From contig BDDD01000435.1 of assembly GCA_001972305.1 (NCBI GenBank), positions 548,581 to 612,580 of the forward strand: 64,000 bases of DNA. The letters are read 5' to 3'. Position numbers and translations under genes: made by a program. Shown here piece by piece: positions 6,256-63,119 of the stretch (position 1 is its first letter; each line of letters starts with the position of its first letter). The notes beneath the pieces are model-generated. The model did not search any database, was not told the DNA's origin, and worked only from the letters and a program-made list of their open reading frames with translations. This stretch comes from Cephalotus follicularis (Eukaryota > Streptophyta > Magnoliopsida > Oxalidales > Cephalotaceae).

Positions 6256-6481
6256 AAACCCTAAATCACCTATCCATTCTTTTACGCCTTCTTGCTTTTT
6301 ACTAATACCTGTGAGTTCTTGAGATTTACAAATTCTCTCGTGCCTTCAACCTCAAATCTTCGTCTTCAACCCATCTTCATCCAAGTTTCTGAGTAAGTTA
6401 ACGGTTCTTTTACTGTTCTAAAACTGGTTCTTGTGTTTCCTCCTTACTCTTTCTTCATCTTCTTAGTTTACCTTGACCTAA

Positions 6482-9427: not shown

Positions 9428-11848
9428 TGTCACGCCCCGAATCGTGGGATGGGCCCCGCGATTCGACACGTGGCAATCCGTACAATCATAAAAATTTAGA
9501 ACTTAATATAAATCATAATCAAAATCAAAATCAAAATCCTTTATTTATTGTGTGGATTACAGACCCAGTTCAAATCAAATAAATTACATCATCATGAACC
9601 AGAATAAAATAAAATAAAATAAATACATAATTTATTTCTGCAATTGCGTCCATGGAAGCGTACTGTCGAGGAGGAGAACTTACTGTACTTTTTATCCTTG
9701 CCGCTGCTGCGATGTGCCTCCGCTACCTGTACCTATACCTGGCCCATTCAAGAGAATGGGTCAGCAACCCTGAGGGTTGTGTAGGTCACCCCATACACGG
9801 GCACATACCAGAGGAACAAGCAAGCACAAGCAGAGGAGAAAATAATATAAATATGCAATCACAATCAAAATATAATCATCATCATGCCTTTATCCTCGGA
9901 CTACTCTACTCGAATCATACATAAAAATCATGCAGGCGTAACATTCAAATACTGGCGCCAACACATCTTCGTCTTCCCTCCTCCCAAGGCCATGGCGCTT
10001 AACACCGCACACTTAAGACGCGCGCCAGTGGACGAGGATGACCACAGCACCTTGTCCTCGAAAGTTTGGCGTTATTACTAAGGACCAGCTTCGTGAGTGC
10101 AGGTAGACCATGGCGCTCTGCTATGGCGCAACCTCGGGCAGAGCAGAGGAGAGTGCAAGACGTCTTCGTGGGGAGCTCGAGCCCAGTTCCATGCGTGGGA
10201 CGCATGGACCTGCTTCCTCGGACGCCTGGGACTAACGCGTCCTCGGCAGCGTCTTCGGAGACATACTGGCTCATCTCTAGCGTCATGGCAGAGAGTGCTA
10301 CACATGGCAGAGGACAAGGACGTCCTCTGCGCATGGTGTTCTCAGCATCTCGAATCCTCTGCTCCTATGCTCGCTCGATGGCACCTCAGCAGGTCACCTC
10401 GGAGCCTTGGGTCCACAGGCATGAGCCCATGGTCTTGCAAAGGACGGGAAGCATGCAGAGGACAATGGCGTCCTCTGCACATGCGCTGGTGCGTACGGCA
10501 TGGCACCTCGGCAATGTCTCCTTGGACAAGCATGCTTGGTAGTTGGTGCACGGCACTATGGCTCCTCAATAATTGGTGCTCGACTCCTCGGCACCTTAGG
10601 AGCAGGCATCTCGGACGCTCGATAGTTGGATGATCAACACCTCACTTCCACCACTACGCCTCCTTAGCCATTGCATAAAATGTCAGTGGTTGGGTGTCAA
10701 CATTGCATGTTGAGCATGCAATACTGGGCAGTGCACGGAGTCACTGTAAATTGACACCTTCAATGGCACTTCGGTGCTTATCAGTGGCATGCCATGGATG
10801 GGTCCTCCGTTTCATGGCAGAGGAAGCTACGGTTGGCGCCCTTGCAGAGGAGAGTTACAATGGCTCCTCGGATGCTTACCACCTCAGCATCTCGGCCCAT
10901 CATTTCCAGCGTGGGCAGAAAGGTTTAGGTGTGGTAGGGGAGCATGGCTAGTAACACTCAACCTTCCTCTCCTCTCCTCTGCATATTGCATCCTTCGAAC
11001 ACTTATTTGTGCAACAGTAGCTCGCTAAATGGCAAGAAGGGAAAGCTACACGCAAGGCATAATTACAACTAAAAGATGCTTGAAGGGATTAGCCTATGTA
11101 TATATACCTGGTCTTACTACTGCTACACCCTTATAACACAATCTCATATTAATAACATCAAGAACAACAAGCAGATAGTAAAATACAGAGAAGGCAACAT
11201 AACAATCCACACACACAATATGCTGGTAGGCACCCAGGTATAGAGTAACCTACTTGGAGATGGTTGGAAACAGAGATCGTCCTCTTGCTCCCCAATCCCT
11301 GGACTTCCTTCCTTGCCAAGGGCTACCACACTCCAAGTTGTCTCTTGCTTTATTTCCTTACTTTCCAGGGGACGGCACACTCCTTCAGCAAATATATATA
11401 TGTGTGGGCAGGGACCCTTCTTCTTGGCTTCTTCCTCCTTTTTCCCCAACAGCAGGTCCCCACTCTCCACTTTCTTCACTCTCACGAAAATTCAAGAACC
11501 AGTGAAAATGAAGAATGCCAAAGCTTATTCCAGGGCTGTCTTGGTCCATATATATATGCATCAAAAGAAGAGTCTGGAATTCTCAAGAAATTCCTAAGGA
11601 ATGCAGGCCATCTTCTGGGCTTGGGCTTGGATTGGGCTGCCCTCTTTAATAATCCTTTCCTTATTAAATTTTAAGTCCAATACTTTGCACCATATAATCT
11701 TGGCCCAATAATTCTTAAGCCCAAAGTCATAATTTATACTCCATTAAGACCCAACGAAAATACATCATAAATTCGGGTCCAGCCCAAAAAGTGGGAAAAT
11801 AATTACAAGGCCCAATAATAATATTTTATAATATTTAGGGCTCTTACA
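9428..11848. mobile_element. E3: LTR-type insertion nested in E1 (probable solo LTR, 2421 bp)
   Basis: The insertion starts TGTCACGCC, ends CTCTTACA, and is flanked by a perfect 5-bp duplication TTGTG (9423-9427 and 11849-11853). Removing it restores ATTCTTGTTGTGACCTCGG, which matches the uninterrupted E2 sequence around 58930-58955. TG...CA ends with a 5-bp duplication indicate integrase-mediated insertion. I see no internal direct repeat, PBS or recognisable protein domain, so a solo LTR fits best. The middle part (about 9950-10900) is GC-rich and gives overlapping open frames on both strands that match nothing I know. A non-autonomous element with unrecognised short LTRs is the alternative. 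Confidence 0.75.
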
Positions 11849-11853
11849 TTGTG

Positions 11854-12748
11854 ACCTCGGATTGCTCGCGTAAATAGGTAATTAACTCCAAAAAGGCTTA
11901 AATAACTTGGCAAAAGCATAAGTGAAAATGGGCCTTGCCTTCTCGAACTTTATCTTTAATTAGTTCCTTAGAACTTTTAACTTTGATCAAATCACTAACC
12001 TTTGGTAGACGAGGTCACATAATCTTGATGGTCCCCGTAGGACCTTTTACTCTTGAGAGTGCTTCAGTTTGACAGTAACTGAGTCTTCAAAATCTTTATA
12101 CTCGTATTTTGAGTTCTTGGTCTGCTCGGACAAGTTCTCATGGGTTTGCCGAGGAGAGTATCGTCTGACCTAAGAGTTTTTAGGACAGGCCGACTGAGCT
12201 TTCAGTCCACTTGGAGATACTTGTATTAAAGTGCTCAGTCCGACGAGCTTGATCATTGCGAGTTCTCATGGATTAGTCTTTCAAGTCACGACTTTAGGTC
12301 TGATTGGACAAGTTCTCATGGTGTTGCCAACCAGAGTTTGCTCCCTTGGGAGTCTAAGTGCTTCCTTGGAAGTATTTAGGTGTGCTCCTCGGAAGGAGTC
12401 TTTTGTACGCTCCTCGGAAGTAGGCTTTTTGTATGCTCCTCGGAAGGAGGCTTTTTGAATGTGCATCCTTGGATGCTCTTGAACGCCTGTTTGGCTGGTC
12501 TGTCTGAGACCTCGGCTTGTGTTGATTTTCTTTTTGAGAATTAGCCTTCGTAAGGCTTAGGAAACCTCGGATCTTGGTGCCCCCTTGAGGGCATGGTCCG
12601 AGATGCTTTATGTAGAACTGAGGGAACTGATCGGTGGCTGTTCAGAGGTTTGAGGACTTGAACATTGGACCTCCGGTCCCTTGCAAACTTGGAACTATAA
12701 TATAGAACACAAATCTTGAAAAATTTCAATTGAAAAAATATCTTACAT
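11854..12748 (-). other. E1 non-coding region downstream of pol
   Basis: In element orientation this follows the pol stop. It is clearly similar to 57972-58930 of E2. Apart from the 25-bp tandem array at 12384-12458 I see no feature. Confidence 0.7.
12384..12458. repeat. 25-bp minisatellite in E1, three copies
   Basis: GCTCCTCGG recurs at 12384, 12409 and 12434, an exact 25-bp period. Each unit contains the near-palindrome CTCCTCGGAAGGAG. E2 has five copies of the same unit at 58281-58405. Confidence 0.85.
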
Positions 12749-15700
12749 TCATTGATAGTACTTCCTCAGATGCTCGGCATTCCAAGCTCTGGCAATCTCC
12801 CTACCCCCCAAAGTTTCAAGTTTGAATGTTCCTGGGCGGAGGACCCTTTTGATCTTGTACGGCCCTTCCCAGGCAGGGGCTAGCTTTCCTCTGGTACCAG
12901 TAGGATCTGCAACGGCTGAGTTCCGTAGAACTAAGTCTCCTTGCCTCAGTGGTCTTGGGCTTACTTTTTTGTTGTAGTAGCGACTAACCCTTTGTTGGTA
13001 GGCTGCAACTCTGATTGCAGCTTTATCTCTGAGCTCTCCCACTAAGTCGAGGAGGCACCTCAGCCCTTCTTCATTGTTGTCCCCAGTAAAATGTACCACT
13101 CTTGGTGATTGTACTCCAACCTCTACTGGTATCATAGCGACTGTCCCAAAACAAAGGTTGTACGGGGACTCACCAGTTGTAGTCCGAGGAGTGGTTCTAT
13201 ATGCCCATAATACACTTGGTAGTTCTTCGGTCCACCTTCCTTTGCTGTCTTCTAGGCGCTTTTTCAAGCCCGAGATGATTTCTCTGTTGATCACCTCGGC
13301 TTGACCATTACTTTGAGGGTAGGCTACTGAGGCAAGCCTATGCTCAATCCTCCATTCTCTGAAAAAGTCCCGAAAGGCTTGGCAATCAAACTGCTTACCA
13401 TTATCAGTGATAATGGTCCTCGGAACTCCAAATCTGCAAATTATTGACTTCCACACAAAACTCTCCGTGTTCTTCTCTGTTATTGTTGCCAGGGGTTCTG
13501 CTTCCACCCACTTAGTGAAATAGTCAACCGCTACAATGAGAAACTTCCTCTGGCCTGTTGCCATTGGTAATGGTCCGACGAAGTCCATTCCCCACTGTGC
13601 GAAGGGCCACGGAGCCGTAATGGATGTCAAAGGTTGAGAAGGCCTCCTGCTTATGTTGGCGTTCCTCTGACACTTGTCACACTTCCTTACTAAATTTATT
13701 GCATCTTGATGCATAGTCGGCCAGTAGTACCCTTGCCTTAGAAGCTTGTGAGACAGAGTCCTGCCCCTAGTGTGGTTTCTGCAAATTCCTTCATGAACCT
13801 CCCTTAGAGCATAATCGGCCTCTAAGGGGTTCAAGCATCTCAGCCAAGGAAATGAGAAAGACCTTTTGTAAAGGATCCCATCTCGGAATTGGAACCTGTT
13901 TGCTCTGTAAACTAGCTTCCTCGCCTCCACGGGGTCCTCGGACAGGATCCCGTCCCTTAGCCAAATAACAAAGGGAGTCATCCAATTTGGCTCGTGAGGA
14001 GTATCTATGTCCATTACCTCTACCTGTGAGATTGTCGAACGCTCCAAGTAGTCAACTAGCACTGTTTGATTTTTCTCTAACTCCTCTGCTGTTGCTAGCT
14101 TGGACAATTGGTCTGCTCTGACGTTCTCCGCTCTTGGCACTTTCACAATCTTCAAAACTTCAAAGGCTGACTTCATGCCCTGAAAATGGGCTAAGTATTT
14201 TGTCATGAGGTCTTCTCGGGCCTCATACTCCCCATTTGCCAAACCAACCACTAGCTGGGAATCACTAGAGGCTTCAATCCTCTGCACCTCCAAGTGGTCA
14301 GTCAGAACCTTGATTGTATGGGCTTGAAAATATGGCCTCAATTTCCTGGCCGAGATGATCAAAGCATATGCATATTTCTCCACCTCTGGGTACCTCCCCT
14401 CTGCATCGTTTAAAGCCTTGCTCACATAGTACAGAGGCTTTTGAACTTTGTCCTCTTCTCGGACTAGCACTGCACTTACTGCGCCTGAGGTGGCCGCAAG
14501 GTACAAATACAGGTCTTCTCCATCCTTAGGCTTTGAGATCAGAGGAGGAGAAGCCAAATATTCCTTCAGTTTGTCGAAGGCTGCTTGACAGTCATCTGAC
14601 CATGAGAATCCCTTGGGATCTCTGAGTATTTTAAAGAAGGGAAGGCACTTTTCTGCTGACTTAGACACAAACCTACTCAAGGCTATGATCTTCCCATTCA
14701 ATCTCTGGACATCCCTGATGGTTTGAGGTGGCCTCATGCTTTGAATGGCCGAGATCTTCTCTGGGTTGGCCTCTATACCCCTGCTAGAAACCATGAATCC
14801 GAGGAACTTTCCCGAGGTGACCCCAAATGTACACTTGGACGAATTGAGCTTCATGTTGTATCTCCTCAACACCTCAAATGTCTCCTCCAAGTCTTTTACA
14901 TGAGGATTCCTGGCTGGGGTCTTGACAAGCATGTCGTCTATGTACACCTCCATGTTCTTCCCAATCTGAGGCTCAAAAATCTTGTTGACCAGGCGCTGGT
15001 AGGTGGCCCCTGCATTTTTCAAGCCAAAGGGCATAACTTTGTAGCAATACATTCCTCGGTCAGTTATGAATGCTGTATTCTCCTCATCCGATCTATGCAT
15101 TGGGATTTGATTGTACCCCGAGTAAGCATCCAAGAAGCTTAGTAATCTATAGCCCGAGGTTGCATCCACCAACTGATCTATCTTCGGGAGAGGGAAGTTA
15201 TCTTTAGGGCAGGCTTTGTTGAGGTCTGTGAAGTCTATGCATATCCTCCATTTCTCATTGGCTTTTTTGACTAACACAGGATTTGCTAGCCAGTTCGAGT
15301 AGTGTACTTCTCGGATAAAACCTGCCTGCAACAACTTGCTAACCTCCTCGACTATTGCCTGCTGCATCTCAGGGGCGAAGTTCCTCTTCTTTTGTCTGAT
15401 CGGTGGCCTGGCTGGATCCACACTTAGCTTGTGAACCATCACATCTAGACTGATGCCAGGGACCTCCTCTGACGACCATGCAAACACATCCTTATTGTTT
15501 CGGAGGAATGTTATTAATTCCTCTTTCTCCGCCTCTCCAAGTTGTGAGCCAACTTGGAGTATTCTCTCTTCGTTGTCCTCCTCCACGGGCACTTGGAGGA
15601 CATCCTCTACCAGTTGTGGACGCTCAGGTTCCATGTCTCCTCTGAGCTCCACATTTGCTATGGAAAGGACCTTGCCCTTCCCCTTGTCTGAGATGGCAGT

Positions 15701-18037
15701 TTTATAACATCTCCTCGCCACCTCTTGATCTCTTCTGACCTCCCCCACGCCAAACCTTGTGGGAAACTTCATCAGTAAGTGTCTCGTAGACACTATGGCC
15801 TCCAACAAGTTCAGACCTGGTCGCCCTATTATAGCATTGTATGGGCTTGGGGTGTCCACCACCAGGAACGTCATCTCGACTTGAGTCTGACGTGGGGACG
15901 TGCCTGCAACCACGGACAGGTTGATAGATCCCAGAGGATGGATTGTCTCACCTGTGAAGCTAACTAGTAGGGTTTTGACAGGCTTTAGTTGGTCGGCCGG
16001 TATCCTCAACTGATCGAATGCATGCTTGTACAGTATATCGGCCGAGCTGCCGCTATCAAGGAGAATCCTCTTCATGGTAAAGAGTTCTACCAGAAGGGTA
16101 ACCACCACTGGGTCATCGTGAGGAAGACGTACTCCCTCATAGTCCGCCTCCGAGAAGGATATCACCTCCTCATCTCCTCCAGCTCTGAGCCTTTTGCTGT
16201 GTGGGACTTGTTGCACAGCAAGGGACTGTCTCCCATAGGCCTTTCTCGCATTTGAATCGTCGCCGTCAGACGCGACCCCCCCAGAGATGGTATGGATAAC
16301 ACCTCTGGGTTGTTGCTATTGTTGCTCCTCCTGCTGCTGAGGAGCCTCTTCTCTTCTCTGCTCTCTTCTTCCTTGAGGAGCATCTCTGTCAACATACTTG
16401 CGTAGATGTCCCTTTCTAATCAGATCCTCAATCTGATTTTTGAGTTGCCTGCACTCCTCTGTATCGTGACCGTGGTCACGATGGTACCGGCAGTACTTCT
16501 CCATGCTTCTGTTCTCTGTCGGGGCCCTCATCTTCTCGGGCCATTGGAAAGGGACCTTATCTTGCTCCACTGCAAGTATTTTAGTACGTGTATCCAGGAG
16601 GGGAGCAAAGGTATTGTAAGATGGAATTGGTGCTCCACCCCTGGATGTACCCTCCCGCCTAGAAAGCTTATGTCTGAGGTCTCCCTTGGACAGGTCTGAC
16701 CTCTCCTTTCTCTTCTCTCTTCTCTCGGGAGCATTTCGTGAATGCTCCCTTCTCTCCTCCTGTTGGCCAATCCAAGGTGCCTTCTGCTTCCTGGCCAACA
16801 TCTCTTCCTCAGCGTTCACATATCTCTCGGCTCTTTTCAACAATTATGCCATGTCCTTGGCCGGCTTCTTCAGTAGAGAGAAAGTAAATCTCGAGTTGCT
16901 CCTCAGCCCATTATTCAAGGCTGCCAGAGCAAAGGACGGCTCCAGGTCCTTGACTGTGAGAGATTCTTTGTTAAACCTGGTGAGGTAATCTCTCAACGTC
17001 TCATTCTTACCCTGCACTACGTTGATGAGATGGGTAGAGTTCCTCCTCTAAGTGGTGCTGTTGAGGAACTTCGTAACGAACAGTTCCGTAAACTGATCGA
17101 AGCTTTTCACTGAATTCTTGGCTAAAGTGAAATACCATGATTGGGCAGCTCCATTTAAAGTCACCGGGAACCCGCGGCAAAGCATTGCGTCCGAGGCCTG
17201 ATGCACCCACATTGCCTGGATATAAGTGCGCACATGTTGAATGGGGTCCGAGGACCCATCGTACTTGTCAAGACATGGGTTTTGAAACCCACTGGGGACC
17301 GGCTCTGCTACGATCTCGGCCGTGAAGGGGTGTGCATTGATATTTTGCACCTCGGATAGGTACCCCCTCGGATGTTCCACTCCTCGGAACCTCCTTTCCA
17401 AGTCTGCAAGCCTCATGTTCACTGCTTTCTCTACCTCTTCAATGTTCCTAGCTCTGCTAGAAACATGTGACCCTCCAGCCACTGAGGCTGGGGGGTTGGC
17501 CCTACTCCCTCGGGCAGTACCAGCTCTGCGTGGAGCATTAGAACTCACTTGTGCCTCCTCTGCTCCCCTGTCCTGCTGCCAAGGATCCACATCCATGGGC
17601 TGGTGCTGAGAGTGTCCTCTCCTGGGATCGTTGGGATGATCCCTAGCGGTCGAGGACTCAGCTCTCTGAGACGCATTGATCTCAGGTCTCCTTCCCAGGG
17701 GATTGTTGTCCCCTGACGGCCTAAGGGGAAGTTCGTCTCACCTCGACCGGTTTCGCCTGGCACCTCGTGGATGCCTTGTCTCCACCTCTGGCCTATGGGG
17801 GCCAGAAACTCCTCGGGCCACTTGCTGAGCAAGCCCTACTTGGTGTTGTTGGTTGGCTAGAGTTGTGACCAACCGATCTGTGACGCGCTCCAATCCTTGG
17901 AGGAATTGGTTGAGTTGTTCCCCTGTAACGGGAGTTGGATCTTGGGCCGCTACTTGAACGGCTTCTGGTGGAGGAGCTGCAACCTCTTCTTGTTGGCTGC
18001 GAGTGGCTCCAACCAGGGTATTCTTCCTCGGTGGCAT
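12749..18037 (-). pseudogene. E1 gag-pol (Gag, protease, RT, RNase H remnant, integrase), disrupted
   Basis: One reading frame runs from the ATG at 18037 to the stop near 12749 but is cut by TGA 17738-17740, TAG 17048-17050, TAA 16844-16846 and TAG 16316-16318. E2 has sense codons at all four sites. Order: Gag, with the variant knuckle C-x2-H-x4-H-x4-C (CRYHRDHGHDTEEC); aspartic protease with intact active site LLDSGSSADILY; RT with MEVYIDDMLVKT; integrase with an HHCC finger and the D, D, E core (MDFVGPLP, ITDNGKQF, NGQAEVINRE). The last 1155 codons are uninterrupted. RNase H is almost gone: about 363 bp present in E2 (56079-56441) is missing in frame, with the junction near 14296. The copy could not retrotranspose alone. 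Confidence 0.95.
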
Positions 18038-18062
18038 GGTTGTTGACGACTTTTTGTAGTGT

Positions 18063-18080
18063 TTCCCACAGACGGTGCCA
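18063..18080 (-). other. E1 primer-binding site
   Basis: On the minus strand, two bases after the 5' LTR, the sequence is TGGCACCGTCTGTGGGAA. E2 reads TGGCGCCGTCTGTGGGAA, so E1 carries one G-to-A change. Nine bases of the E2 form fit a tRNA 3' end ACGGCGCCA (tRNA-Asp type); the primer identity is inference. Confidence 0.8.
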
Positions 18081-18082
18081 AC

Positions 18083-19087
18083 TGTTGATACAGAAATCCT
18101 TCTCTCAACAGTATCCTACGTGGAGGACTTTTATTTGTTAAGAGAAACGCTAGCCAAAGGATGCCTGGAGGAAGAAGGTTGATCTCGGACACCTGCACAA
18201 GGTAACAACAATGGTGGGAGTCCAGGAGGTTGTTCTCTCGGGGACACTCCGACGCTCAAGTTAGTCAAGTGCAGATGAAATAATGCTCTCTTGAATGTAA
18301 AAATTGCTGACCTTTGTTCAGTATGTTGAACTCGTATTTATAGTGGTGTTGGGTAACTATTATAGCGTGAAAATCGGATGTGATGGCTGTCCCCTAAGGA
18401 AATTCCGAGGATCTAGGGATTTCCCTTATCTCCACCTGATTTTTCTCTTCTTTCCTTTATCACCTCCTTAATTATCTCGTTTCCTTTGTTGCAGTTGATC
18501 AGGATTCAATCTTCTTGTTTGGATAAGTATAAATCCCAACTAATCTGCCGAAGCTGATCCCCTTATCCCGTAGATAAGGTTGAGGTCCTCCGCTTGTAAG
18601 ACTGTTGAAGGTACTGATTATAACACTGCAGCTGAGGTCATGGTCTTCATTAGTCCGAGGACAAAGGTTGTTTGGATACGTCCGAGGAAGAGCTTGATAG
18701 TTTCTGTGTAGTGAATGCCTCTTGTTCCGTGTCTGGTAGGTCCTCAAGGCCGAGGGAGTCCTCGACCCTTACACCTTGGATGTAGTCTTCTTCATCCACG
18801 GATATGCTCTAGGAATGGATGACCTGTTGTGTGGCCGAGGGTATCCTCGGCTGGGTTGCTTCAAATGGTGTCCTCGGACCTGGATCCGAGGAGAATAATG
18901 TTTGTACTAGCATCACTGGGTGTGTCCTCGGCACTTATGCCGAGGAAAAGTCCTCCTTATGTCACTGTTTTGTTGGTGAACAGGCTTCCTCTGCCTTTAA
19001 TTCATCAATCCTTGTCATTTGGACATCTGGCAGCTCTCGGATGAGGACACGTGTTGCTTTTGATATAACATAATTTTTCCCACATCA
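18083..19087 (-). repeat. E1 5' LTR
   Basis: 1005 bp, the promoter LTR for the minus-strand gag-pol. The TATA box TATAAATA lies on the minus strand at 18335-18342. Its inner end (TATCAACA in element orientation) abuts the primer-binding site. Confidence 0.95.
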
Positions 19088-51455: not shown

Positions 51456-51486
51456 TGATAGAGGAAAAATATGTTTATATTAAGAA

Positions 51487-51498
51487 GGACACGTGTCC
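51487..51498. promoter_or_regulatory. Perfect 12-bp G-box palindrome in E2 U3
   Basis: GGACACGTGTCC is self-complementary with the CACGTG core bound by plant bZIP and bHLH factors. It is identical in the 3' LTR (62217-62228). E1 keeps only ACACGTGT at the same place. Confidence 0.6.
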
Positions 51499-52124
51499 AC
51501 AGCAGACGTGACCAGCTGTCCAAGAGGGATTAGAAGCTTATCAGCAAGCCGAGCAGAGAAGCACGCACATGGCAAAGAACGTCCTTCTCGGACCTGCAGC
51601 CGAGAACCATTATTTTTCGAAGAGAACACACTGAAACCTCAAGTCTGAGAATACACCTCGGACTGTGAGCCAGAAGACCATATCCAGGGCGCAAGGGCCG
51701 AGGACTACCTCTGCCCACAATATCTATCAGACATGGAACAGGAGGTACGCCCTCCACTACGCAGAAACTGAGAAGCTTCTTCTCGGACATATTCAAGTTA
51801 GCTTTGTTCTCGGACCAAAGAGGACCATGATCTCAGCAACAGAGTCATAATTGACCACATATACAATCTAATAATGGAGGACCTCAACCTTATCTACGGG
51901 ATAAGGGGATCAACTTCAGCAGATTAGTTGGGATTTGTACTTATCCAAACAAGAAGATAGAATCCTGATCAACTACAACACAGGAAACGAGATAATTAAG
52001 GAGGAGATAAAGGAAAGAAGAGAAAAATCAGGTGGAGATAAGGGAAATCCCGAGATCCTCGGAATTTCCTTAGGGGACAGCCATCACATCCGACTTTCAC
52101 GCTCCAACAGTTACCCAACACCAC

Positions 52125-52132
52125 TATAAATA
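52125..52132 (+). promoter_or_regulatory. E2 LTR TATA box
   Basis: TATAAATA in the context CCACTATAAATACAAG, conserved in E1 (18335-18342, minus strand). It should place the U3/R boundary about 30 bp downstream. Confidence 0.7.
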
Positions 52133-52386
52133 CAAGTTCAACATACTGAACAAAGGTCAGCAACTTTTACATCATAAAGCACCCTATTTCATCTGCACCT
52201 TGTCTAACTTGAGCGTCGGAGTGTCCCCGGGAGAACAACCTCCTGGACTTCCACCATTTTTGTTACCTTGTGCATGTGTTCGAGATCACATTCTTCCTCC
52301 AGGCATCCTTTGGCTAGCGTTTCTCTTAACAAATAAAAGTCCTCCACGTAGGATACTGTTGAGAGAAGGATTTCTGTATCAACAGT

Positions 52387-52404
52387 TGGCGCCGTCTGTG
52401 GGAA
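52387..52404 (+). other. E2 primer-binding site
   Basis: TGGCGCCGTCTGTGGGAA starts two bases after the 5' LTR. The first nine bases complement a tRNA 3' end ACGGCGCCA, as in tRNA-Asp; complementarity beyond that is doubtful, so the primer is inferred. Confidence 0.85.
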
Positions 52405-52429
52405 ACGCAATGAGAAGCCATTAACAACC

Positions 52430-55400
52430 ATGTCTCCCAGGAAGAATACCCTAGTTGGAGCCACTGGTAGCCAACAACGCCAGGAGGTCATAGCTCCTCC
52501 ACCAGAAGCCGTTCAAGAAGAGGCTCAACAACAAGCTCCCGTTACAGGGGAGCAACTCAATCAGCTCCTCCAAGGGATGGAGCGTATCACAGATCTGTTG
52601 GTCACAACTTTGGCCAACCAACAACAAGCCGGGCCTGCTCAGCCAGTGGTCCGAGGAGTTTCTGGCCCCCAGAGGCCAGAGGTGGAGACAAGGCACCCAC
52701 GAGGTGCCAGGCGAAACCCGTCGGGGAGAAACGAACCTCTCCTCAGGCGGTCAGGGGACAACAATCCCCTGGGAAGGAGAGCTGAGATCAATGCATCTCA
52801 GAGGGCTGAGTCCTCAACCGCTAGGGATCATCCCAACGATCCCAGGAGAGGACACTCTCAGCACCAGCCCATGGATGTGGATCCTCGGCAGCAGAACAGG
52901 GGAGCAGAAGAGGCACAAGTGCGTTCTAATGCTCCACGCAGAGCTGGTACTGCCCGAGGAAGTAGGGTCAATCCCCCAGCCTCAGTGGCTGGAGGGTCAC
53001 ATGTTTCTAGCAGAGTTAGGAACATTGAAGAGGTAGAGCAAGCAGTGAACATGAGGCTTGCAGACTTGGAAAGGAGGTTCCGAGGAGTGGAACATCCAAG
53101 GGGGCACCTATCCGAGGTGCAAAATATCAATACACACCCCTTCACGGCCGAGATTGTAGCAGAGCCGGTCCCCAGTGGGTTTCGAAACCCAAGTCTTGAC
53201 AAGTACGATGGGTCCTCGAACCCCATTCAACATGTGCGGACTTATATCCAGGCAATGTGGGTGCATCAGGCCTCGGACGCAATGCTTTGCCGAGGGTTCC
53301 CAGTAACTTTAACTGGAGCTGCCCAATCATGGTATTTCACCTTGGCCAAGAATTCAGTCAAAAGCTTCGATCAGTTTACGGAACTGTTCGTCACGAAGTT
53401 CCTCAACAGCACCACTCAGAGGAGGAACTCTACCCACCTCATCAACGTGGTACAGGGTAAGGATGAGACTTTGAGAGATTACCTCACCAGGTTCAACAAA
53501 GAATCTCTCACAGTGAAAGACCTGGAGCCGTCCTTTGCTCTGGCAGCCTTGAATAATGGGCTGAGGAGAAACTCGAGATTAACTTTCTCAATAATGAAGA
53601 AGCCGGCCAAGGACATGGCAGAATTGATGAAAAAGGCAGAGAGATAAGTAAAAGCAGAGGAAGAGATGATGGCAAGGAAACAAAAGACACCATGGACTGG
53701 CCAACAGGAGGAGAGAGGGGAGCATTCACGAAATGCTCCCGAGAGAAGAGAGAAGAGGAAGGAGAGGTCAGACCTGTCCAAGGGAGACCTCAGACATAAG
53801 CTTTCTAGACGAGAGGGTACATCCAGGGGGGGAGCGCCAACACCATCTTACAATACCTTTGCCCCTCTCCTGGACACACGTACTAAAATACTTGCAGTGG
53901 AGCAAGATAAGGTCCCTTTCCAATGTCCCGAGAAGATGAGGGCCCCGGCAGAGAACAGAAGTGTGAAGAAGTACTGCCGTTACCATCGTGACCATGGGCA
54001 CGATACAGAGGAGTGCAGGCAGCTGAAAAATCAGATTGAGGATCTGATTAGAAAGGGACACCTGCGTAAGTATGTAGACAGAGATGCTCCTCAAGGAAGA
54101 AAAGAGTAGAGAAGAGAAGAGGCTCCTCGGCAGCAGGAGGAGCAACAACAACAACAACCCAGAGGTGTTATCCACACAATCTCTGGGGGGGTCGCGTCTG
54201 GGGACGACGACTCGAATGTGAGGAAGGCCTATGGGAGACAGTCCCTTGCTGTGCAACAAGTTCCTCACAGCAAAAGGCTCAGAACTGGAGGAGATGAGGA
54301 GGTGATATCCTTCTCGGAGTAGTGGCAGCTCGGCCGACATCCTGTACAAGCACGCATTTGATCAGCTGAGGATACCGGCCGACCAGCTAAAGCCTGTCAA
54401 AACCCCACTGGTTGGCTTCACAGGTGAGACGATCCATCCTCTGGGATCTATCAACCTGTCCGTGGTCGCAGGCACGGCCCCACGTCAGACTCAAGTCGAG
54501 ATGACATTCCTGGTGGTGGACACCCCAAGTCCATACAATGCAATAATAGGGCGACCAGGTCTGAACTTGTTAGAGGCCGTAGTGTCTACGAGACACTTAC
54601 TGATGAAGTTTCCCACAAGGTTTGGCGCGGGGGAGGTCAGAGGAGATCAAGAGGTGGCGAGGAGATGTTATAAAACTGCCATCTCGGACAAGGGGAAGGG
54701 CAAGGTCCTTTCGATAGCAAATGTGGAGCTCAGAGGTGATGTAGAACCAGAGCGTCCACAACCAGTCGAGGATGTCCTCCAAGTGCCCATAGAAGAGGGC
54801 AACACAGAGAGAGTACTCCAAGTTGGATCACAACTTGGAGAGGTGGAGAAGGAGGAATTGATAACATTCTTCCGAGATAATAGAGATGTTTTTGCATGGT
54901 CGGCAGAGGAGGTTCCTGGCATCAGTCCAGATGTAATGGTTCACAAATTGAGCGTGGACCCAGCTAGGCCCCCGATCAGACAGAAGAAGAGGAACTTTGC
55001 CCCTGAGAGGCAGCAGGCGATTACCGAGGAGGTCAGTAAGCTGTTACAGGCAGGTTTTATCCGAGAAATACACTACTCGGACTGGCTAGCAAATCCTGTG
55101 TTAGTCAAAAAAGCCAATGGAAAATGGAGGATGTGCATAGACTTCACAGACCTCAACAAAGCTTGTCCAAAGGATAACTTTCCTCTCCCAAAGATTGACC
55201 AACTGGTAGACGCAACCTCGGGCTATAGATTATTAAGCTTCTTGGATGCTTATTCGGGGTACAATCAAATCCCCATGTATAAGTCAGACGAGGACAAGAC
55301 AGCGTTCATCACGGACCGAGGAATGTATTGCTACAAAGTTATGCCCTTTGGCTTGAAAAATGCAGGGACCACCTACCAGCGCCTGGTCAACAAGATTTTT

Positions 55401-57971
55401 GAACCTCAGATTGGGAAGAACATGGAGGTGTACATAGACGACATGCTCGTCAAGACCCTAGCCAGGAACCCTCATGTAAAAGACTTGGAGGAGACCTTTG
55501 AAGTATTTAGGAGGTACAACATGAAGCTTAATCCGTCCAAGTGTACATTTGGAGTCACCTCGGGAAAGTTCCTCGGATTCATGGTTTCTAGCAGAGGTAT
55601 AGAGGCCAACCCAGAGAAGATCTCGGCCATTCAAGGCATGAGGCCACCTCAGACTATCAGGGATGTCCAGAGATTGAATGGGAAGATTGCAGCCCTAAGC
55701 AAGTTTGTCTCTAAGTCAGCAGAGAAGTGCCTCCCCTTCTTTAAAATACTTAGGGATCCCAAGGGATTCTCGTGGTCCGACGACTGTCAAGCAGCCTTTG
55801 ACAAGTTGAAGGAGTATTTGGCTTCTCCTCCTCTGATCTCGAAGCCTAGGGATGGAGAAGACCTGTATTTGTACCTTGCGGCCACCTCGGGCGCAGTGAG
55901 TGCAGTGCTAGTCCGAGAAGAGGACAAAGTTCAAAGACCAGTGTATTATGTATGCAAGGCTTTGAATGATGCTGAAGGGAGGTACCCAGAGGTGGAGAAG
56001 TTCGCCTATGCTTTGATCATCTCGGCAAGAAAGTTGAGGCCGTATTTCCAAGCCCATACAATCAAAGTTTTGACTGACAAACCACTTAAACAAGTTCTTG
56101 CCAAGCCTGACACCTCGGGCAGATTAATCAAGTGGTCAGTCGAACTAGGCGAGTATGATGTGAAGTTCGAGTCCAGACCAGCAATCAAGTCACAGGTACT
56201 GGCCGACTTTGTTGGAGATAATACACCTACGGAGTGTATGGAGGAGAACCCTTCCGAGACCGAGAAGGGGATGTGGAAGTTATCAGTGGATGGATCCTCA
56301 TGCCTCACTGGCAGTGGGGCAGGATTAGTATTAACAAGTCCAGATGGGTGGACGTTGGAATATGCTTTGAGGTTCAAATTCAAAGCCACAAATAACGAAG
56401 CTGAGTGGGAAGCTCTGATAGCTGGACTAACAATTGCCAAGCACTTGGAGGTGCAGAGGATTTAAGCCTCAAGTGACTCTCAGCTTGTGGTTGGCTTGGC
56501 AAATGGGGAGTATGAGGCCAGAGAAGAGCTCATGACAAAATACTTAGCCCATTTTCAAGGCATGAAATCAGCCTTCGAAGTGTTGAGAATTGTAAAGGTG
56601 CCAAGAGCAGAGAACGTTAGAGCTGACCAATTGTCCAAGCTAGCAACAGCAGAGGAGTTGGAGAAAAATCAAACAGTGCTAGTTGATTACTTGGAGCATC
56701 CGACAATCTCCCCAGCAGAGGTAATGGACATAGATGATCCACAGGAGTCAAATTGGATGACTCCCTTTGTTATCTGGTTAAGGGACGGGATCTTACTCGA
56801 GGACCCCGTGGAGGCGAGGAAGCTGGTGTATAGAGCAAACAGGTTCCAATTTCGGGATGGAATCCTCTACAAAAGGTCATTCTCTTTTCCTTGGCTGAGG
56901 TGCTTAAACCCATCAGAGGCCGATTACGCACTAAGGGAGGTTCATGAAGGAATTTGTGGAAATCACACTGGGGGCAGAACTTTGTCTCACAAGCTGCTAA
57001 GGCAAGGCTACTACTGGCCGACTATGCATCAAGATGCAATAAACTTAGTGAGGAAGTGTGACAAGTGTCAGAGGAACGCCAACATAAGTAGAAGGCCTTC
57101 TCAACCTCTGACATCAATTACGGCCCCGTGGCCTTTCGCACAGTGGGGAATGGACTTCGTCGGACCACTCCCTATGGCAACTGGTCAGAGAAAGTTTCTT
57201 ATTGTAGCAGTTGATTACTTCACCAAATGGGTGGAAGCAGAACCCTTGGCCACAATTACAGAGAAGAACACAAAGAGTTTTGTGTGGAAGTCAATTATCT
57301 GCAGGTTCGGGGTTCCGAGGACAATTATCACTGATAATGGCAAACAGTTTGATTGCCAAGCCTTCCGAGACTTTTGCAGAGAATGGAGAATAGAGCATAG
57401 GCTTGCCTCAGTAGCCTACCCTCAAAGCAATGGTCAAGCCGAGGTGATCAATAGAGAGATCATCTCGGGCTTAAAGAAACGCTTAGAAGACAGCAAAGGA
57501 ATGTGGACCGAGGAGCTACCAAGTGTATTATGGGCATATAGAACCACTCCTCGGACTACAACAGGAGAATCACCCTACAGTTTATGCTTCGGAGCCGAGG
57601 CTATGATACCAGTGGAGGTTGGAATGCAATCACCAAGAGTTGTCCACTTCACTGAAGACAACAATGAAGAGGGACTTAGATGCCTCCTTGACTTAGTGGG
57701 AGAGCTCAGAGATAAAGCTGCAATCAGAGTTGCAGCCTACCAACAAAGGGTTAGTCGCTACTACAACAAAAAAGTAAGCCCAAGACCACTAAGGCAAGGA
57801 GACCTGGTTCTACGGAACTCAGCCGTTGCAGATCCTACTGGTACCAGAGGAAAGTTAGCTCCTGCCTGGGAAGGGCCATACAAGATCAAGAGGGTCCTCC
57901 GCCCAGGAACATTCAAACTTGAAACTTTGGGGGGTAGGGAGATTGCCAGAGCTTGGATGCCGAGCATCTGA
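52430..57971 (+). pseudogene. E2 gag-pol (Gag, protease remnant, RT, RNase H, integrase), disrupted
   Basis: Gag starts MSPRKNTLVGATGSQQ and is open for 405 codons to TAA 53645-53647. It then continues in frame through the knuckle CRYHRDHGHDTEEC to TAG 54107-54109. Relative to E1, 92 bp is missing at 54319/54320. This shifts frame, creates TAG 54320-54322 and removes the aspartate codon of the protease DSG. RT is intact (VYIDDMLVKT). RNase H is present (LSVDGSS, NNEAEWEAL) but has TAA at 56463-56465, where E1 has GAA. Integrase runs 56487-57971 with an HHCC finger and D,D,E core; a 1-bp loss near 57956 replaces the normal tail AEHLRKYYQ. E1 has sense codons at the E2 stops, so the parent family evidently had one continuous frame. 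Confidence 0.95.
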
Positions 57972-59119
57972 GAAAGTACTACCAATAATTGTAAGAAATT
58001 TTCAATGAAAGTTTGAAATTCTTCAAGATTTGTGTTCAACATCCTAGTTCCAAGTTTGCAAGGGACCGGAGGTCCAATGTTCATGTCCTCAAACCTCTGA
58101 ACAGCCGCCGATCAACTCCCTCAGTCTTAAGCTAAGCATCTCAGACCATGCCCTCAAGGGGACACCAAGATCTAAAGCTTCCCAAGCCTTACGGAGGCTA
58201 ATCCTCAAGAAAGAAAATCAACACGAGCCGAGGTCTCACGCGGACCAGCCAAACAGGCATCCAAGGATGCATAAACAAAAGCCTCCTTCCGAGGAGCACA
58301 CAAAAGCCTCCTTCCGAGGAGTACACAAAAGTCTCCTTCCGAGGAGCACACAAAAGCCTCCTTTCGAGGAGCACGCAAAAGACTCCTCCCGAGGAGCACA
58401 TATATCTATCAACAAAGACTTCCAAGGAAGCACCAAGACTCCCAAGGGAGCAAACACTGGTTGGAAACACCATGAGAACTTGTTCAACCAGACCTAAAGT
58501 CGTGACTTGAAAGGCGAATCCATGAGAACTCGCAACGATCAAGCTCATCGGACTGAGCACTTTAATACAAGTGTCTCTAAGTGGACTGAAAGCTCAGCCG
58601 ACCTGTCCTAAAAACTTAGGTCAGACGATACTCTCCTCGGCAAACCCATGAGAACTTGTCCGAGCAGACCAAGAACTCAAACTATGAGTATAAAGATTTT
58701 GAAGACTCAGTTACTGTCAAACTGAAGCACTCTCAAGAGTAAAAGGTCCTACGGGGACTATCAAGATTGTGTGACCTCACCCACCAAAAGTTAGTGAATT
58801 GAGCAAAATTAAAAGTTCTAAGGAACTAATTGAAGATAAAGTTTGAGAAGGCAAGGCCCATTTTCACTTATGCTTTTGCCAAGTTACTTAAGTCTTTTTG
58901 GAAGTTAGTTGCTTATTTATGCGAAGAATCCGAGGTCACAACGTGGATAAAATTCCTAAGGGAATTGTTAACAAGTTCAAGCATGCAGAGATCAACCACA
59001 ACACTTAGCATAAAAATTTAAAAGCAAGGCCAGAGAATGAAAAAGAAGTTCCTTTATTAATACATTGAAGAGATTACATGAAAGAAGACTAAAAAACTAT
59101 TACAAGCTAAGGCAAAAAA
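57972..59119. other. E2 non-coding region between pol and antisense gene
   Basis: Similar to E1 until about 58950, then diverged. Contains the minisatellite 58281-58405. The poly(A) signals of both convergent transcripts should lie here; I cannot place them. Confidence 0.65.
58281..58405. repeat. 25-bp minisatellite in E2, five copies
   Basis: Units start at 58281, 58306, 58331, 58356 and 58381, each like G(C/T/A)CTCCTTCCGAGGAGCAC followed by ACAAAA. Contiguous, with no unique spacers. E1 has three copies. Confidence 0.92.
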
Positions 59120-61586
59120 TTAAGGCTGAGGAGCATCTTCTTGTTCAGCCAAGGGATCTTCGGGAGGAGGTGAAGGAACAAAAAAGGCCGCAGTTGAAGG
59201 CAGAGGAGGAACGCCCAAGCCAGCGAAAATGTCCTCTGGAGTTGAAGAAGGAGGAAGAGCTGAGGAGTTTACCGCAGGGTCAGAGGGAGCAGCAGTAGGA
59301 TCTGCGGCGAGAACAACCACCTCTGGAGAAGTAGAAGTTGGCATCTCACCCACGGGGGCAGCCGAGGCCTCTTGAGCCAACCTCTGACGGACCCTGTCCT
59401 CCACCTCATCGATCCCCTCGGGGTAGAAGTCAAATGCATTGGCAGAGTGATAATACACCACTTCATCCAGAGGGAACTCAGGCTTCAGAGAAGTGACCCA
59501 ATTTCGGCAGGCATAGAAACCTCGGCGAAAGTACTCGGCCGATTCCTGGAAGACTGCTTCATCGAACTCCTCTGAGCCCTTAAACTCCTCCACCGAGGAC
59601 CTCAGCAACTCCTTGAACTCCTCCGAGTTCTTAAAGTCGGCCACGGCCTGATGCTGTTCCCTCCTCAGTTGTTCCTTCTCTTTCCTCTGCTGCTGCTGAA
59701 GCTTGACCACCAGATCACTATTTTTATCCTCGACCCGTTTCAGCTTGGCCTCCAGCCTCTCCTTCTCGGCCTTCATCTCCTCAAAGTCCTCAACTGCTTG
59801 TTTCTTTTCCTCGACCAAGGACTCCTGAGCCTTCAGAACCTCGTTCAGCTGAGCTTGGGCCGAGCGTGCAGTTTCTTCTAAGGTGGCCATGCTCGACCTC
59901 AGCTCTCGGTCCCTGGCCACAACTGCACAGAAGTTGTCCACAAGCAGCTGGGTGTTGTTCAGAGACTGTCAGAGAAGTGAAAAAGTGTTAGACATTGTAA
60001 AGAACTAAGGTGCAAGAAAAACCAAGGTAACTAAAGAAGAGATCATTTACCCTCAAGTGGCTCCTCAGGCAAAGGGTCGCCAAATCTTCGTTGGTCCACT
60101 TCTGCCTTGCCTCCATCTCCTGGGGCAAGAAGACCACCCGGCTAAGTGCTTGAGGGACTCCAGGACCGTTCAAGTTCAAGTGGTCACACTCCATGCCATC
60201 AAACCCATCAAGCAGCTCGTCCATCGTCCGAGATGGAGGAAGAATTATGGGATCTCGGGAGCTAGATCCGAGGGCAGCCACGTCCTCGACCTCCCGCACC
60301 TTCTCGGTGCCTTCCACAGTTTTAGCCTTTCTGCTCCTCTTGGTCAGAGGAGCGTGTTCAGTTGAGGGGGTGTTGTCAGCAGGCCTCTTGCTGGCCTCCT
60401 TCCTCTTCTCGGTCACAACCACCGGTACCCTAGCAGAGGGAGGAGGAGGAGTCTTGGTTTGTGTTCTTGGCACCTCGGTCAAAGGGGCTTTTCCCTTAGA
60501 CTTTGACCCAGTAGGTGCAGGAGTCTTCCTCTGATCAGTGGCCTTAATGATGGAAGAAAGATCTCGCCGAGGAGCCATTGCTGAAAGAAGACAAGAGAGT
60601 TAGAGTCAGAGATCAAAAGAAATCCAAAGGTTAGTGAAAATGGCATTAACAGAAGAAAGGGAGGAGACAGATTTTATACAATTTGGTTCAGACATTGGGG
60701 GCAGAGGACTATTGTGCTCTCCCTCTTCCTCTGATTCTTCCTCCTCGGATACGTCGGAGGAAGATCCATGTCCGAGGACCACACTTAGTCCTGCCTGGAC
60801 CAGACGATCCTCAGTTATGGTGGAATTTACATCCTCTGGCTCAAGGGCCAGGAGCTTGCTAAGACCTAGCTTCTCAGCCGAGGTCAGACGAGATTTTGTA
60901 TTTAAGGATTTAACGTCCAAAGACGTGCACCAGGGAGGGGGAATAAACCCCTCGAAGTCCTTTATTAAAAAGTATTTCCTCCTCCAGTTTTTTATAGATT
61001 GGGTGGGGTTGAGAAGAAGTTTTTTCACCCCAGAACGGGATTTGAAAAAATACCCGCTCGTTTTGGGGGTGGCCAAGATGACATGAAACTCTTTGAAGAG
61101 ATTCACAGTCGCTTCGACCTCGGACTCAATGCATTTGACTAAGAATCCTATCATGAAGCCCCAAGACTGAGGTTGGAGAAGAGAAGGATGAAGACTAAAG
61201 CTAAGAAGGACCGAGATGGCGAAGGAGGGGACAGGGACCCTCAGACCATGGGCAAGGGCCCCTTCGAAGACCATGAAGAGGCCTTCTCGGCTCTCGGTGA
61301 CTACCCGAGGATCCTTAGGAAGGTTGAAGGTCAACCCACGAGGGAAATTGTACTTCCTGGTAAGCCTTTTGACCTCGGCTTGACTAAGTTTACTCAAACC
61401 AAAGACACAATCCTCAGACAGAGGATTGGCCTCTGCAGTGGGTGCATCAGGGTCACCCACCACAGCCCCTAGGCTACCTTCCACATCACATGGCCTTTCA
61501 GCAGGGGGAATCAACATAGCTAGGAGAGCAACAGACAGGGGAGTAGAAGAAGAAGAAGACCCAAAAGAAAATTCTTGGCTAGCCAT
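59120..61586 (-). CDS. Intact antisense gene of E2: gypsy-type Transposase_28-like/coiled-coil protein, 760 aa
   Basis: Three exons on the strand opposite gag-pol: 61586-60680, 60580-60051, 59965-59120. Introns are 100 and 85 bp or within one base of that (GTATAAAA...TTTCAG, GTAAATGA...CTGACAG). Phases fit and no stop interrupts 760 codons. Exon 1 carries the putative gypsy-type transposon domain (Pfam Transposase_28): KDPRVVTESREGLFMVFEGA, LLQPQSWGFMIGF, KYFLIKDFEGF. Exon 2 is low-complexity with a basic KRSRKAK patch, a possible nuclear signal. Exon 3 is a long coiled coil (about residues 500-570), then FKGSEEFDEAVFQESAEYFR, FYACRNW, AFDFYPEG and a Pro/Ala-rich tail. Such antisense frames recur in Tat-lineage elements; their function is unknown. 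Splicing is inferred from E1/E2 conservation, not shown. Confidence 0.85.
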
Positions 61587-61770
61587 GAAAATAAATGATG
61601 AAGAAGAAGAAAACGATATAGGAAAGCAAAGAGTGGTAGGAACTTACCAAAGATTTAAAGTTGAAAATTTGAGAAAGGGAATTGAAGACACTGCAAACTC
61701 GACAAGCTCTCAAAAGCACTGTAAATTCTTAAGGTTGAAGAAGCGAAAGTTGTTATGAGAGAAGCAAAAG

Positions 61771-61778
61771 CTTTTATA
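61771..61778 (-). promoter_or_regulatory. TATA box of the E2 antisense gene
   Basis: Minus-strand TATAAAAG in the context GGCCTATAAAAGC, 185-192 bp upstream of the ATG at 61586, mirroring 6247-6255 in E1. Confidence 0.6.
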
Positions 61779-62168
61779 GGCCCCTTCCTTGGATCCTGGC
61801 CATCCACCTCACATCAGATCCAACGGTGGGAAGACAGACTGTCAAATCAGGCGCGGGAAACGAAAAGGCAGAGGCGGGAATTACTATGTGCATGCCACAT
61901 GTCAAGCATACTCAATACGAAACATCAATGATAATCATAACGGTTCAATACTCGAGGCCTGTTGATAAGATTGAGGGCAGACCAAAGGTCAAGCGCTAGT
62001 CCTCGGTTCAAGCAGACCAGGTTATGTGTCAGAGCAACAATAAAGGCAACACTCTCGTCCTCAGCCCATTTGTATAAGGAAGAGCTACCAAGAAGTATTG
62101 CAGAGGAGTCTTGCCTGGGCCATGGCTCTCAACTCTGATCCTCCTCCTCTGACCAAGGTCAGAGAACA

Positions 62169-62185
62169 AGGACCAGGGGGGCATA
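62169..62185 (+). other. E2 polypurine tract
   Basis: AGGACCAGGGGGGCATA directly precedes the 3' LTR and is identical to the E1 tract. Confidence 0.87.
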
Positions 62186-63114
62186 TGATGGAGGAAAAAT
62201 ATGTTTATATTAAGAAGGACACGTGTCCACAGCAGACGTGACCAGCTGTCCAAGAGGGATTAGAAGCTTATCAGCAAGCCGAGCAGAGAAGCACGCACAT
62301 GGCAAAGAACGTCCTTCTCGGACCTGCAGCCGAGGACCATTATTTTTCGAAGAGAACACACTGAAACCTCAAGTCCAAGAATACACCTCGGACTGTGAGC
62401 CAGAAGACCATATCCAGGGCGCAAGGGCCGAGGACTACCTCTGCCCACAATATCTATCAGACATGGAACAGGAGGTACGCCCTCCACTACGCAGAAACTG
62501 AGAAGCTTCTTCTCGGACATATTCAAGTTAGCTTTGTTCTCGGACCAAAGAGGACCATGATCTCAGCAACAGAGTCATAATTGACCACATATACAATCTA
62601 ATAATGGAGGACCTCAACCTTATATACGGGATAAGGGGATCAGCTTCAGCAGATTAGTTGGGATTTGTACTTATCCAAACAAGAAGATAGAATCCTGATC
62701 AACTACAACACAGGAAACGAGATAATTAAGGAGGAGATAAAGGAAAGAAGAGAAAAATCAGGTGGAGATAAGGGAAATCCCGAGATCCTCGGAATTTCCT
62801 TAGGGGACAGCCATCACATCCGACTTTCACGCTCCAACAGTTACCCAACACCACTATAAATACAAGTTCAACATACTGAACAAAGGTCAGCAACTTTTAC
62901 ATCATAAAGCACCCTATTTCATCTGCACCTTGTCTAACTTGAGCGTCGGAGTGTCCCCGGGAGAACAACCTCCTGGACTTCCACCATTTTTGTTACCTTG
63001 TGCAGGTGTCCGAGATCACATTCTTCCTCCAGGCATCCTTTGGCTAGCGTTTCTCTTAACAAATAAAAGTCATCCACGTAGGATACTGTTGAGAGAAGGA
63101 TTTCTGTATCAACA
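62186..63114 (+). repeat. E2 3' LTR
   Basis: 929 bp, TGATGGAGG to TATCAACA, nine differences from 51456-52384. Followed by the GCATC duplication. Confidence 0.96.
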
Positions 63115-63119
63115 GCATC

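What the first reader, a model, noticed from the sequence alone, without database searches (positions are those of the whole stretch)
59120..62185. Intact spliced gene inside a dead retrotransposon, antisense to gag-pol
E2 gag-pol is broken in at least five places, yet the antisense three-exon gene reads through 760 codons with good splice sites and its own TATA box. Being antisense also explains how it can keep introns: the packaged genomic RNA carries their complement, which has no splice signals in that sense, so they survive reverse transcription. Antisense frames are known from Tat-lineage elements; a spliced, independently promoted, 760-aa version with a Transposase_28-like domain plus coiled coil is a testable model.
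Basis: partly seen in the sequence, partly recalled or inferred. Interest (0 to 1): 0.78.

Follow-up and report, generated by a model that had tools for sequence, protein, structure and literature searches.

The report
Spliced antisense gene in plant retrotransposon
A plant retrotransposon carries, on the strand opposite its own replication genes, a second protein gene that appears to have introns and to be kept by natural selection across many copies, so the mobile element seems to run a host-style spliced gene of its own.

Summary
On the minus strand of a Retand-type element (51456-63114) three exons (61586-60680, 60580-60051, 59965-59120) join at GT-AG sites into 760 open codons, with a Transposase_28 domain (E=9e-8), a coiled-coil-like exon 3 and a TATA box. 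In 49 further copies of the same 1.58-Gb genome the splice dinucleotides are kept in 48, 46, 49 and 48 of 49. Indels counted against E2 are multiples of three in 53 of 53 cases in exons 2-3, 58 of 74 in exon 1 and 3 of 155 in introns. Median dN/dS is 0.23; wrong frames give 1.09 and 1.55; pol pieces 0.06-0.07. A much diverged version in element E1, on an equally related pol, has introns at the same places: the gene behaves as an exchangeable module. Both versions share a promoter block with paired E2F-like sites (793 exact genome matches). Antisense Transposase_28 ORFs are already published; introns in them were not found in what I could read, but key papers were not held. E2's intactness beside its broken gag-pol is no evidence by itself. 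Transcription and splicing remain untested.

The parts
51456..63114 (+). E2, complete Retand-type LTR retrotransposon; 5-bp target duplication GCATC at 51451-51455 and 63115-63119
   Evidence: LTR pair 10 substitutions in 935 aligned, no gaps; gag, RT, RNase H and integrase domains
51456..52384 (+). 5' LTR of E2
62186..63114 (+). 3' LTR of E2
52430..53647 (+). gag piece of E2 (ends at an in-frame stop)
   Evidence: Retrotrans_gag E=4.5e-15
54462..56465 (+). RT-RNase H piece of E2
   Evidence: RVT_1 E=8.5e-34, RT_RNaseH; RVT_3-like after it at E=3.5e-4, just under cut-off
56487..57971 (+). integrase piece of E2
   Evidence: rve E=1.8e-16, Integrase_H2C2
61853..61880 (-). promoter block with two E2F-like sites (TTCCCGCC 61880-61873, TTTCCCGC 61860-61853)
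   Evidence: 30-nt window starting at 61880 ranks 2 of 484 in conservation; TTTSSCGC upstream of the ATG in 41 of 50 copies; exact E2 pair in 23 of 46 copies with the region; 793 exact genome matches of the 29-nt pattern, reversed control 1
61773..61778 (-). TATA box of the antisense gene
   Evidence: TATAAA in 45 of 49 other copies
61642..61647 (-). GTAAGT, possible donor of a 5'UTR intron (acceptor unresolved in E2)
   Evidence: GTAAGT upstream of the ATG in 45 of 50 copies and in E1
60680..61586 (-). exon 1: Transposase_28 domain
   Evidence: PF04195 E=9.2e-8; dN/dS 0.187
60581..60679 (-). intron 1 (99 nt)
   Evidence: GT 48/49, AG 46/49
60051..60580 (-). exon 2: linker with bipartite NLS-like stretch
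   Evidence: KRP...K[RK].[RK] in 40 of 50, K[RK]SR core in 50 of 50; dN/dS 0.266
59966..60050 (-). intron 2 (85 nt)
   Evidence: GT 49/49, AG 48/49
59120..59965 (-). exon 3: coiled-coil-like stretch, conserved C-terminal segment, proline-rich tail
   Evidence: dN/dS 0.232; weak coiled-coil-type family matches below cut-off; conservation profile
59053..59058 (-). AATAAA, poly(A)-signal-like
   Evidence: present in 11 of 20 copies, two of which (L039, L041) were read for only 103 and 55 nt after the stop
58275..58400 (.). 5 x 25-bp tandem repeat between integrase and antisense gene
4839..19087 (-). E1, second element of the same family, opposite orientation; target duplication GGTTC at 4834-4838 and 19088-19092
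   Evidence: LTR pair 17 substitutions in 1006; 89-91% to E2 in gag-pol
6482..8897 (+). E1 copy of the antisense gene, diverged and broken, GT-AG introns 7408-7505 and 8075-8144 at the same places
6146..6174 (+). paired TTTCCCGC sites of the E1 antisense promoter (6146-6153, 6167-6174); TATAAA at 6248-6253

Best explanation
A functional accessory gene of a Retand-lineage retrotransposon. SHOWN by sequence: a pol II-type unit on the antisense strand (conserved TATA box and E2F-like block), three coding exons with conserved splice sites, and purifying selection on the joined frame while the family multiplied. INFERRED: it is transcribed from its own promoter, preferentially in dividing cells because of the E2F-like sites; it is spliced by the host; it makes a nuclear protein (Transposase_28 module, NLS, coiled coil) that works in trans for the element, most likely as a DNA- or chromatin-binding regulator of the element's transcription or silencing state. 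Because packaged genomic RNA is the opposite strand, its introns are not removed during retrotransposition. The gene also moves as a cassette: E1 and E2 share a backbone but carry very different versions.
For: 760-codon joined frame. Splice sites 48, 46, 49, 48 of 49. Indels a multiple of 3, counted per copy against E2: exon 1 58 of 74, exon 2 40 of 40, exon 3 13 of 13, introns 3 of 155. Median dN/dS 0.229 over 1225 pairs; shifted frames 1.085 and 1.547; 0.22-0.24 in all seven dS bins. Codon positions 1, 2, 3 of exon 1 are on average 93, 93 and 79% identical to E2, with the same pattern in exons 2 and 3. Same intron places in E1 at 56, 34 and 38% aa identity per exon. No intronless match among 40 scored candidates in each. 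Promoter block. NLS-like stretch. The antisense gene of a maize relative (Grande gene23) has its own promoter and a nuclear product, as reported in a review of which I read two of three parts (PMC7264820).
Against: No RNA or protein data. Donor 1 (T|GTATAA) is a weak match to the plant consensus (recalled). Exon 2 has an ATG just after its acceptor, so a separate short ORF is not excluded. Pol is under 3-4 times tighter constraint (dN/dS 0.06-0.07). Exon 1 has 16 of 74 indels that are not a multiple of three. Single splice dinucleotides are not exceptional against other intron positions (34 of 172 reach 46 copies). The copies are high scorers for the E2 protein, which favours unbroken exon 1, and the scored set is not exhaustive (E2 itself does not appear in the list). 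The exact E2F pair is in 23 of 46 copies with the region. No usable fold (pLDDT 37), so DNA binding is untested.
Confidence: 0.8

Rival explanations
1. Two or three separate antisense ORFs, not one spliced gene; the 'introns' are spacers, as in published maps that draw several antisense ORFs per Retand element.
For: Exon 2 starts with an ATG right after its acceptor; a published survey counts 104 antisense ORFs over 63 clusters and does not use the word intron (PMC11963269).
Against: GT and AG kept in 46-49 of 49 copies while 152 of 155 indels in the spacers are not a multiple of three; same places and same reading phase in E1.
Confidence: 0.08
2. The antisense transcript works as RNA (double-stranded RNA or silencing control) and the open frame is incidental.
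For: Antisense transcription can feed siRNA production, as discussed in PMC7264820.
Against: Selection acts on the encoded protein: dN/dS 0.229 against 1.085 and 1.547 in shifted frames.
Confidence: 0.05
3. E2's copy has been taken over by the host as a gene and is kept intact after its element died.
For: E2's antisense frame is intact while its gag-pol has about five lesions.
Against: LTRs differ at only 10 of 935 sites, so the insertion is young; intactness by chance is about 0.13 (arithmetic); 12 of 50 copies lack internal stops.
Confidence: 0.03
4. As a more specific function: the protein is an anti-silencing factor like VANC of Arabidopsis VANDAL transposons, binding element repeats and removing methylation.
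For: VANC targets often form tandem repeats (PMC5735166, abstract); E2 has a 25-bp repeat array beside the gene.
Against: The array lies in the stretch that stays about 90% alike between E1 and E2, outside the diverged gene unit, so the two do not seem to change together. No sequence link to VANC was tested.
Confidence: 0.25

Closest known systems
Retand-lineage antisense TRP28 (Transposase_28) aORFs, surveyed by Vicient 2025 (PMC11963269)
   Same: Antisense ORF between pol and 3' LTR with PF04195, reported for 97% of recently active clusters; LTR, internal and POL-3'LTR sizes of E2 in range
   Different: That paper maps single ORFs and its main text has 0 uses of 'intron'; here three exons, selection over the joined frame, an E2F-like promoter block and a module swap
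Maize Grande gene23 (Gomez-Orte 2013, not held; known through PMC7264820)
   Same: Antisense gene in the same place, own internal promoter, nuclear protein
   Different: The review's main text has 0 uses of 'intron'; the original paper could not be read, so the difference is unproven
Phaseolus pvRetro13-type ORF2 with SMC domain (PMC4093653, passages)
   Same: Extra ORF of Ty3/gypsy elements with an SMC-like (coiled-coil) domain, called antisense in PMC7264820
   Different: Treated as one ORF; no intron mentioned in the passages search (0 uses). No sequence comparison was made here
HTLV-1 HBZ and HTLV-2 APH-2 (review PMC10186651, passages)
   Same: Antisense, spliced, nuclear regulatory protein of a retroelement
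   Different: HTLV-1 antisense transcription starts from a TATA-less 3' LTR promoter and HBZ is a bZIP protein; here an internal TATA promoter and no bZIP match
Ogre and EVADE introns (review PMC12786077, passages)
   Same: Plant LTR retrotransposons with functional introns
   Different: Those introns serve subgenomic RNAs of the element's own transcript; these lie in an antisense gene
VANDAL VANC anti-silencing proteins (PMC5735166, abstract)
   Same: Extra gene of a plant mobile element, a possible parallel in function
   Different: Different kind of element; no sequence link tested

Membership tests
Tat/Retand LTR retrotransposon | Ty3/gypsy order gag-RT-RNase H-integrase between LTRs with target duplication | tested here: met
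Tat/Retand LTR retrotransposon | additional RNase H between RNase H and integrase | tested here: inconclusive
   RVT_3 at the right place, E=3.5e-4, 20.9 bits against cut-off 21.6, piece ended by a stop
Tat/Retand LTR retrotransposon | antisense TRP28 ORF between pol and 3' LTR | tested here: met
   region 57972-62185 (4.2 kb), within the published 2.9-6.6 kb
Tat/Retand LTR retrotransposon | position in the reverse transcriptase tree | not tested
   no reference RT set was used
HBZ-like antisense retroviral genes | antisense, spliced coding gene | tested here: inconclusive
   met by sequence signals, not shown on RNA
HBZ-like antisense retroviral genes | TATA-less promoter inside the 3' LTR | tested here: not met
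   conserved TATA box in the internal region
HBZ-like antisense retroviral genes | bZIP domain (HTLV-1) | tested here: not met
   no bZIP among the 7 Pfam families at E up to 1
VANC-type anti-silencing proteins | binding to element motifs and loss of methylation | not testable with these tools
   needs methylation and binding data

The most novel reading that the evidence does not exclude
The Transposase_28 ORFs and the SMC-like ORFs mapped separately across Retand elements of flowering plants are exons of one ancient spliced antisense gene. Its E2F-like promoter ties its expression to S phase, and it is traded between elements as a complete transcription unit, giving a plant retroelement a cell-cycle-gated, host-spliced regulatory protein analogous to HBZ.
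Probability: 0.35. Interest if true: 0.78.

Novelty: new variant of a known kind. Interest (0 to 1): 0.62.

Why it matters
A retroelement is expected to lose introns because it copies itself through RNA. Placing an intron-bearing gene on the opposite strand escapes this, and here many copies seem to do so under selection. It could explain why antisense Retand ORFs look fragmented, gives a complete protein with which to test the unknown Transposase_28 function, and offers a promoter-based clue (E2F-like sites) to when the element acts. Gene predictors may be annotating such units as host genes.

Tried and rejected
Structure: AlphaFold2 on exon 1 with a two-row alignment gave mean pLDDT 37, useless, so no fold search was made; the second job was not used. 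PDB sequence search of exon 1: one hit at E=0.92, taken as none. Rfam and tRNA scans of the window: nothing. 5'UTR intron: donor GTAAGT is conserved, but in most copies the nearest AG leaves only about 30-40 nt, and in E2 the next AG lies past the ATG, so it stays open; the N-terminal peptide is conserved, which favours the ATG at 61586, though the codon-position signal there is weak. Poly(A) signal: AATAAA in 11 of 20, only suggestive. Host domestication of E2: rejected as above. Transposase_28 loci L001-L008 gave only exon 1 matches at about 30-35% identity, 7 of 8 of them short of the full domain region or with stops, so introns there were not judged. A separate dN/dS for the Transposase_28 stretch failed for too few codons. 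Integrase tree: E1 groups with L057 at low support (0.549), so it was not used beyond distances. Three aligned copies (L023, L044, L056) have shifted or cut frames and were kept in all counts.

Full report
What is there. The window holds two elements of one family of LTR retrotransposons. E2 lies at 51456-63114 on the plus strand and E1 at 4839-19087 on the minus strand, each with a 5-bp target duplication. Their LTR pairs differ at 10 of 935 and 17 of 1006 aligned sites. E2 encodes gag, reverse transcriptase, RNase H and integrase domains. Its gag-pol has about five lesions: two in-frame stops in the gag/nucleocapsid part, a frame change in the protease part, a stop in the RNase H part and a frame change at the integrase end. 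E1 has one open stretch of 1188 codons over most of pol.

The antisense gene. On the minus strand of E2, exons 61586-60680, 60580-60051 and 59965-59120 are separated by introns of 99 and 85 nt with GT-AG ends and join into 760 codons. Residues 106-169 match Transposase_28 (PF04195), E=9.2e-8.

Is it more than chance? The genome in which the window lies (1.58 Gb, unnamed) was searched with the protein: 59 of 24,423 first-look candidates were scored, and the listed matches fall exon by exon, ending near residues 304, 302-482 and 479-760. The set favours copies with an unbroken exon 1 and is not exhaustive: E2 itself is not in the list. Thirty of the loci end some tens of bases before the end of exon 3. 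Splice dinucleotides are kept in 48, 46, 49 and 48 of 49 copies. Of 172 other intron dinucleotides, 34 reach 46 copies and 19 reach 48, median 37.5, so each site alone is not exceptional; the four together, at the very places that keep the frame, are. Indels that are a multiple of three, counted per copy against E2 (so an inherited indel counts more than once): exon 1 58 of 74, exon 2 40 of 40, exon 3 13 of 13; introns 3 of 155; 5'UTR 102 of 307.

Selection. By Nei-Gojobori counts over 1225 pairs of 50 copies, median dN is 0.093, dS 0.415, dN/dS 0.229. By exon it is 0.187, 0.266 and 0.232. The same letters read one or two bases out of frame give 1.085 and 1.547. The ratio stays at 0.22-0.24 in all seven dS bins. 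For the same family two pol pieces, with 16 sequences each of 21 at hand (19 loci, E1, E2; the rest had no match or under half of the piece), give 0.070 and 0.062 at dS 0.426 and 0.454. So the protein was selected while the family spread, more loosely than pol. E2's own survival is not evidence: with five lesions in about 5.5 kb, no lesion in 2.3 kb has a chance of about 0.13 (my arithmetic), and 12 of 50 copies have no internal stop by one count, 11 by another.

Introns and strand. No intronless match was seen among 40 scored candidates at junction 1 of the E2 type, 40 at junction 2 and 40 at junction 1 of the E1 type (the first looks held 1704, 2038 and 1222 candidates). It does not prove it, since the spliced antisense mRNA would have few ways back into an element.

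Two versions, one backbone. E1's gene is 56, 34 and 38% identical to E2's protein in the three exons, with introns at the same places. In the integrase piece (16 sequences) E1 is about as far from the others (dS median 0.470) as they are from each other (0.454). In 227 codons of exon 1 (50 copies) its dS to them is 1.45, against 0.338 among themselves. The E1 version has its own large set in the genome: 150 of 150 scored matches (of 13,628 first-look candidates) at 85-100% identity, E1 itself included. The simplest reading is exchange of the antisense unit between elements by template switching; I could not fetch E1-type backbones to test it further.

Promoter. TATAAA is kept in 45 of 49 copies. 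The 30-nt window from 61880 ranks second of 484 for conservation between 62100 and the ATG; the first-ranked starts at 61925. It carries two sites like the E2F consensus (TTTSSCGC, recalled). TTTSSCGC is found upstream of the ATG in 41 of 50 copies; the pair in its exact E2 form is in 23 of 46 copies with the region. E1, whose promoter is otherwise diverged, has two exact TTTCCCGC there. TTTSSCGC occurs six times on both strands of the 64-kb window, three of them in these two promoters. The 29-nt block occurs 793 times in the genome against 1 for the reversed pattern. Of the 100 places listed there I picked by hand those that matched: 15 lie 419-577 nt before an E1-type exon-1 match and 7 lie 302-323 nt before an E2-type exon 1; this is a selection, not a full count. 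In single-letter shuffles of the E2 promoter 6.7% hold TTTSSCGC, so one site in one copy would mean little.

Protein. Most conserved are residues about 121-220, reaching past the Transposase_28 match. Exon 2 holds a bipartite NLS-like stretch in 40 of 50 copies and its K[RK]SR core in 50 of 50. Exon 3 looks like a coiled coil (weak family matches under cut-off) followed by a conserved segment. No solved relative of exon 1 by sequence and no usable model.

What is known. [quoted passage not shown] abstract, background, one results section and discussion read), which suggests a DNA-binding regulatory role. A 2020 review (PMC7264820; two of three parts read) reports that maize Grande gene23 has its own promoter and a nuclear product, and urges looking for antisense and spliced transcripts. 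A word search found 0 uses of 'intron' in the main text of either. A 2019 survey gives Transposase_28 for 23% of Retand elements (PMC6317226, passages). A 2025 review says plant LTR elements generally lack introns, naming Ogre and EVADE as exceptions (PMC12786077, passages). Searches that could have shown introns or splicing in such antisense genes gave no such title or abstract in their listings; I did not open most listed papers. Three key subscription papers are not held, so priority is not settled. The nearest working parallel is HTLV-1 HBZ, a spliced antisense nuclear protein (PMC10186651, passages).

Verdict. A real, selected antisense gene with conserved splice signals, by sequence evidence; a new variant of a known kind. 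Expression, splicing in the cell and function are not shown.

Noticed in passing
window 9430-11850: E1 carries an insert of about 2.4 kb between the 3' end of its antisense gene and pol, absent from E2; it starts near TGTCACGCCCC and may be a nested element or solo LTR.
   Followed up: no
window 61642-61647 and 6380-6482: Conserved GTAAGT in the 5'UTR of the antisense gene; in E1 a plausible acceptor precedes the ATG, so a further, untranslated exon is possible.
   Followed up: partly
G000, list: The two free letters of the promoter block fall into groups (mostly TT beside E2-type and GC beside E1-type genes, and many TC), hinting at a third version of the antisense gene.
   Followed up: no
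window 60679-60581 and 60050-59966: Introns diverge less (median 0.24 and 0.17) than synonymous sites (0.415) over the 50 copies; perhaps loss of methylated C in GC-rich exons, perhaps constraint.
   Followed up: no
G000:C397:426248-426448: A Transposase_28 match listed with an open frame of 1285 codons, much longer than the others; possibly a version without introns.
   Followed up: no
window 58275-58400: Five copies of a 25-bp tandem repeat between integrase and the antisense gene.
   Followed up: partly
window 42945-43091: A 73-bp perfect tandem duplication outside the two elements.
   Followed up: no
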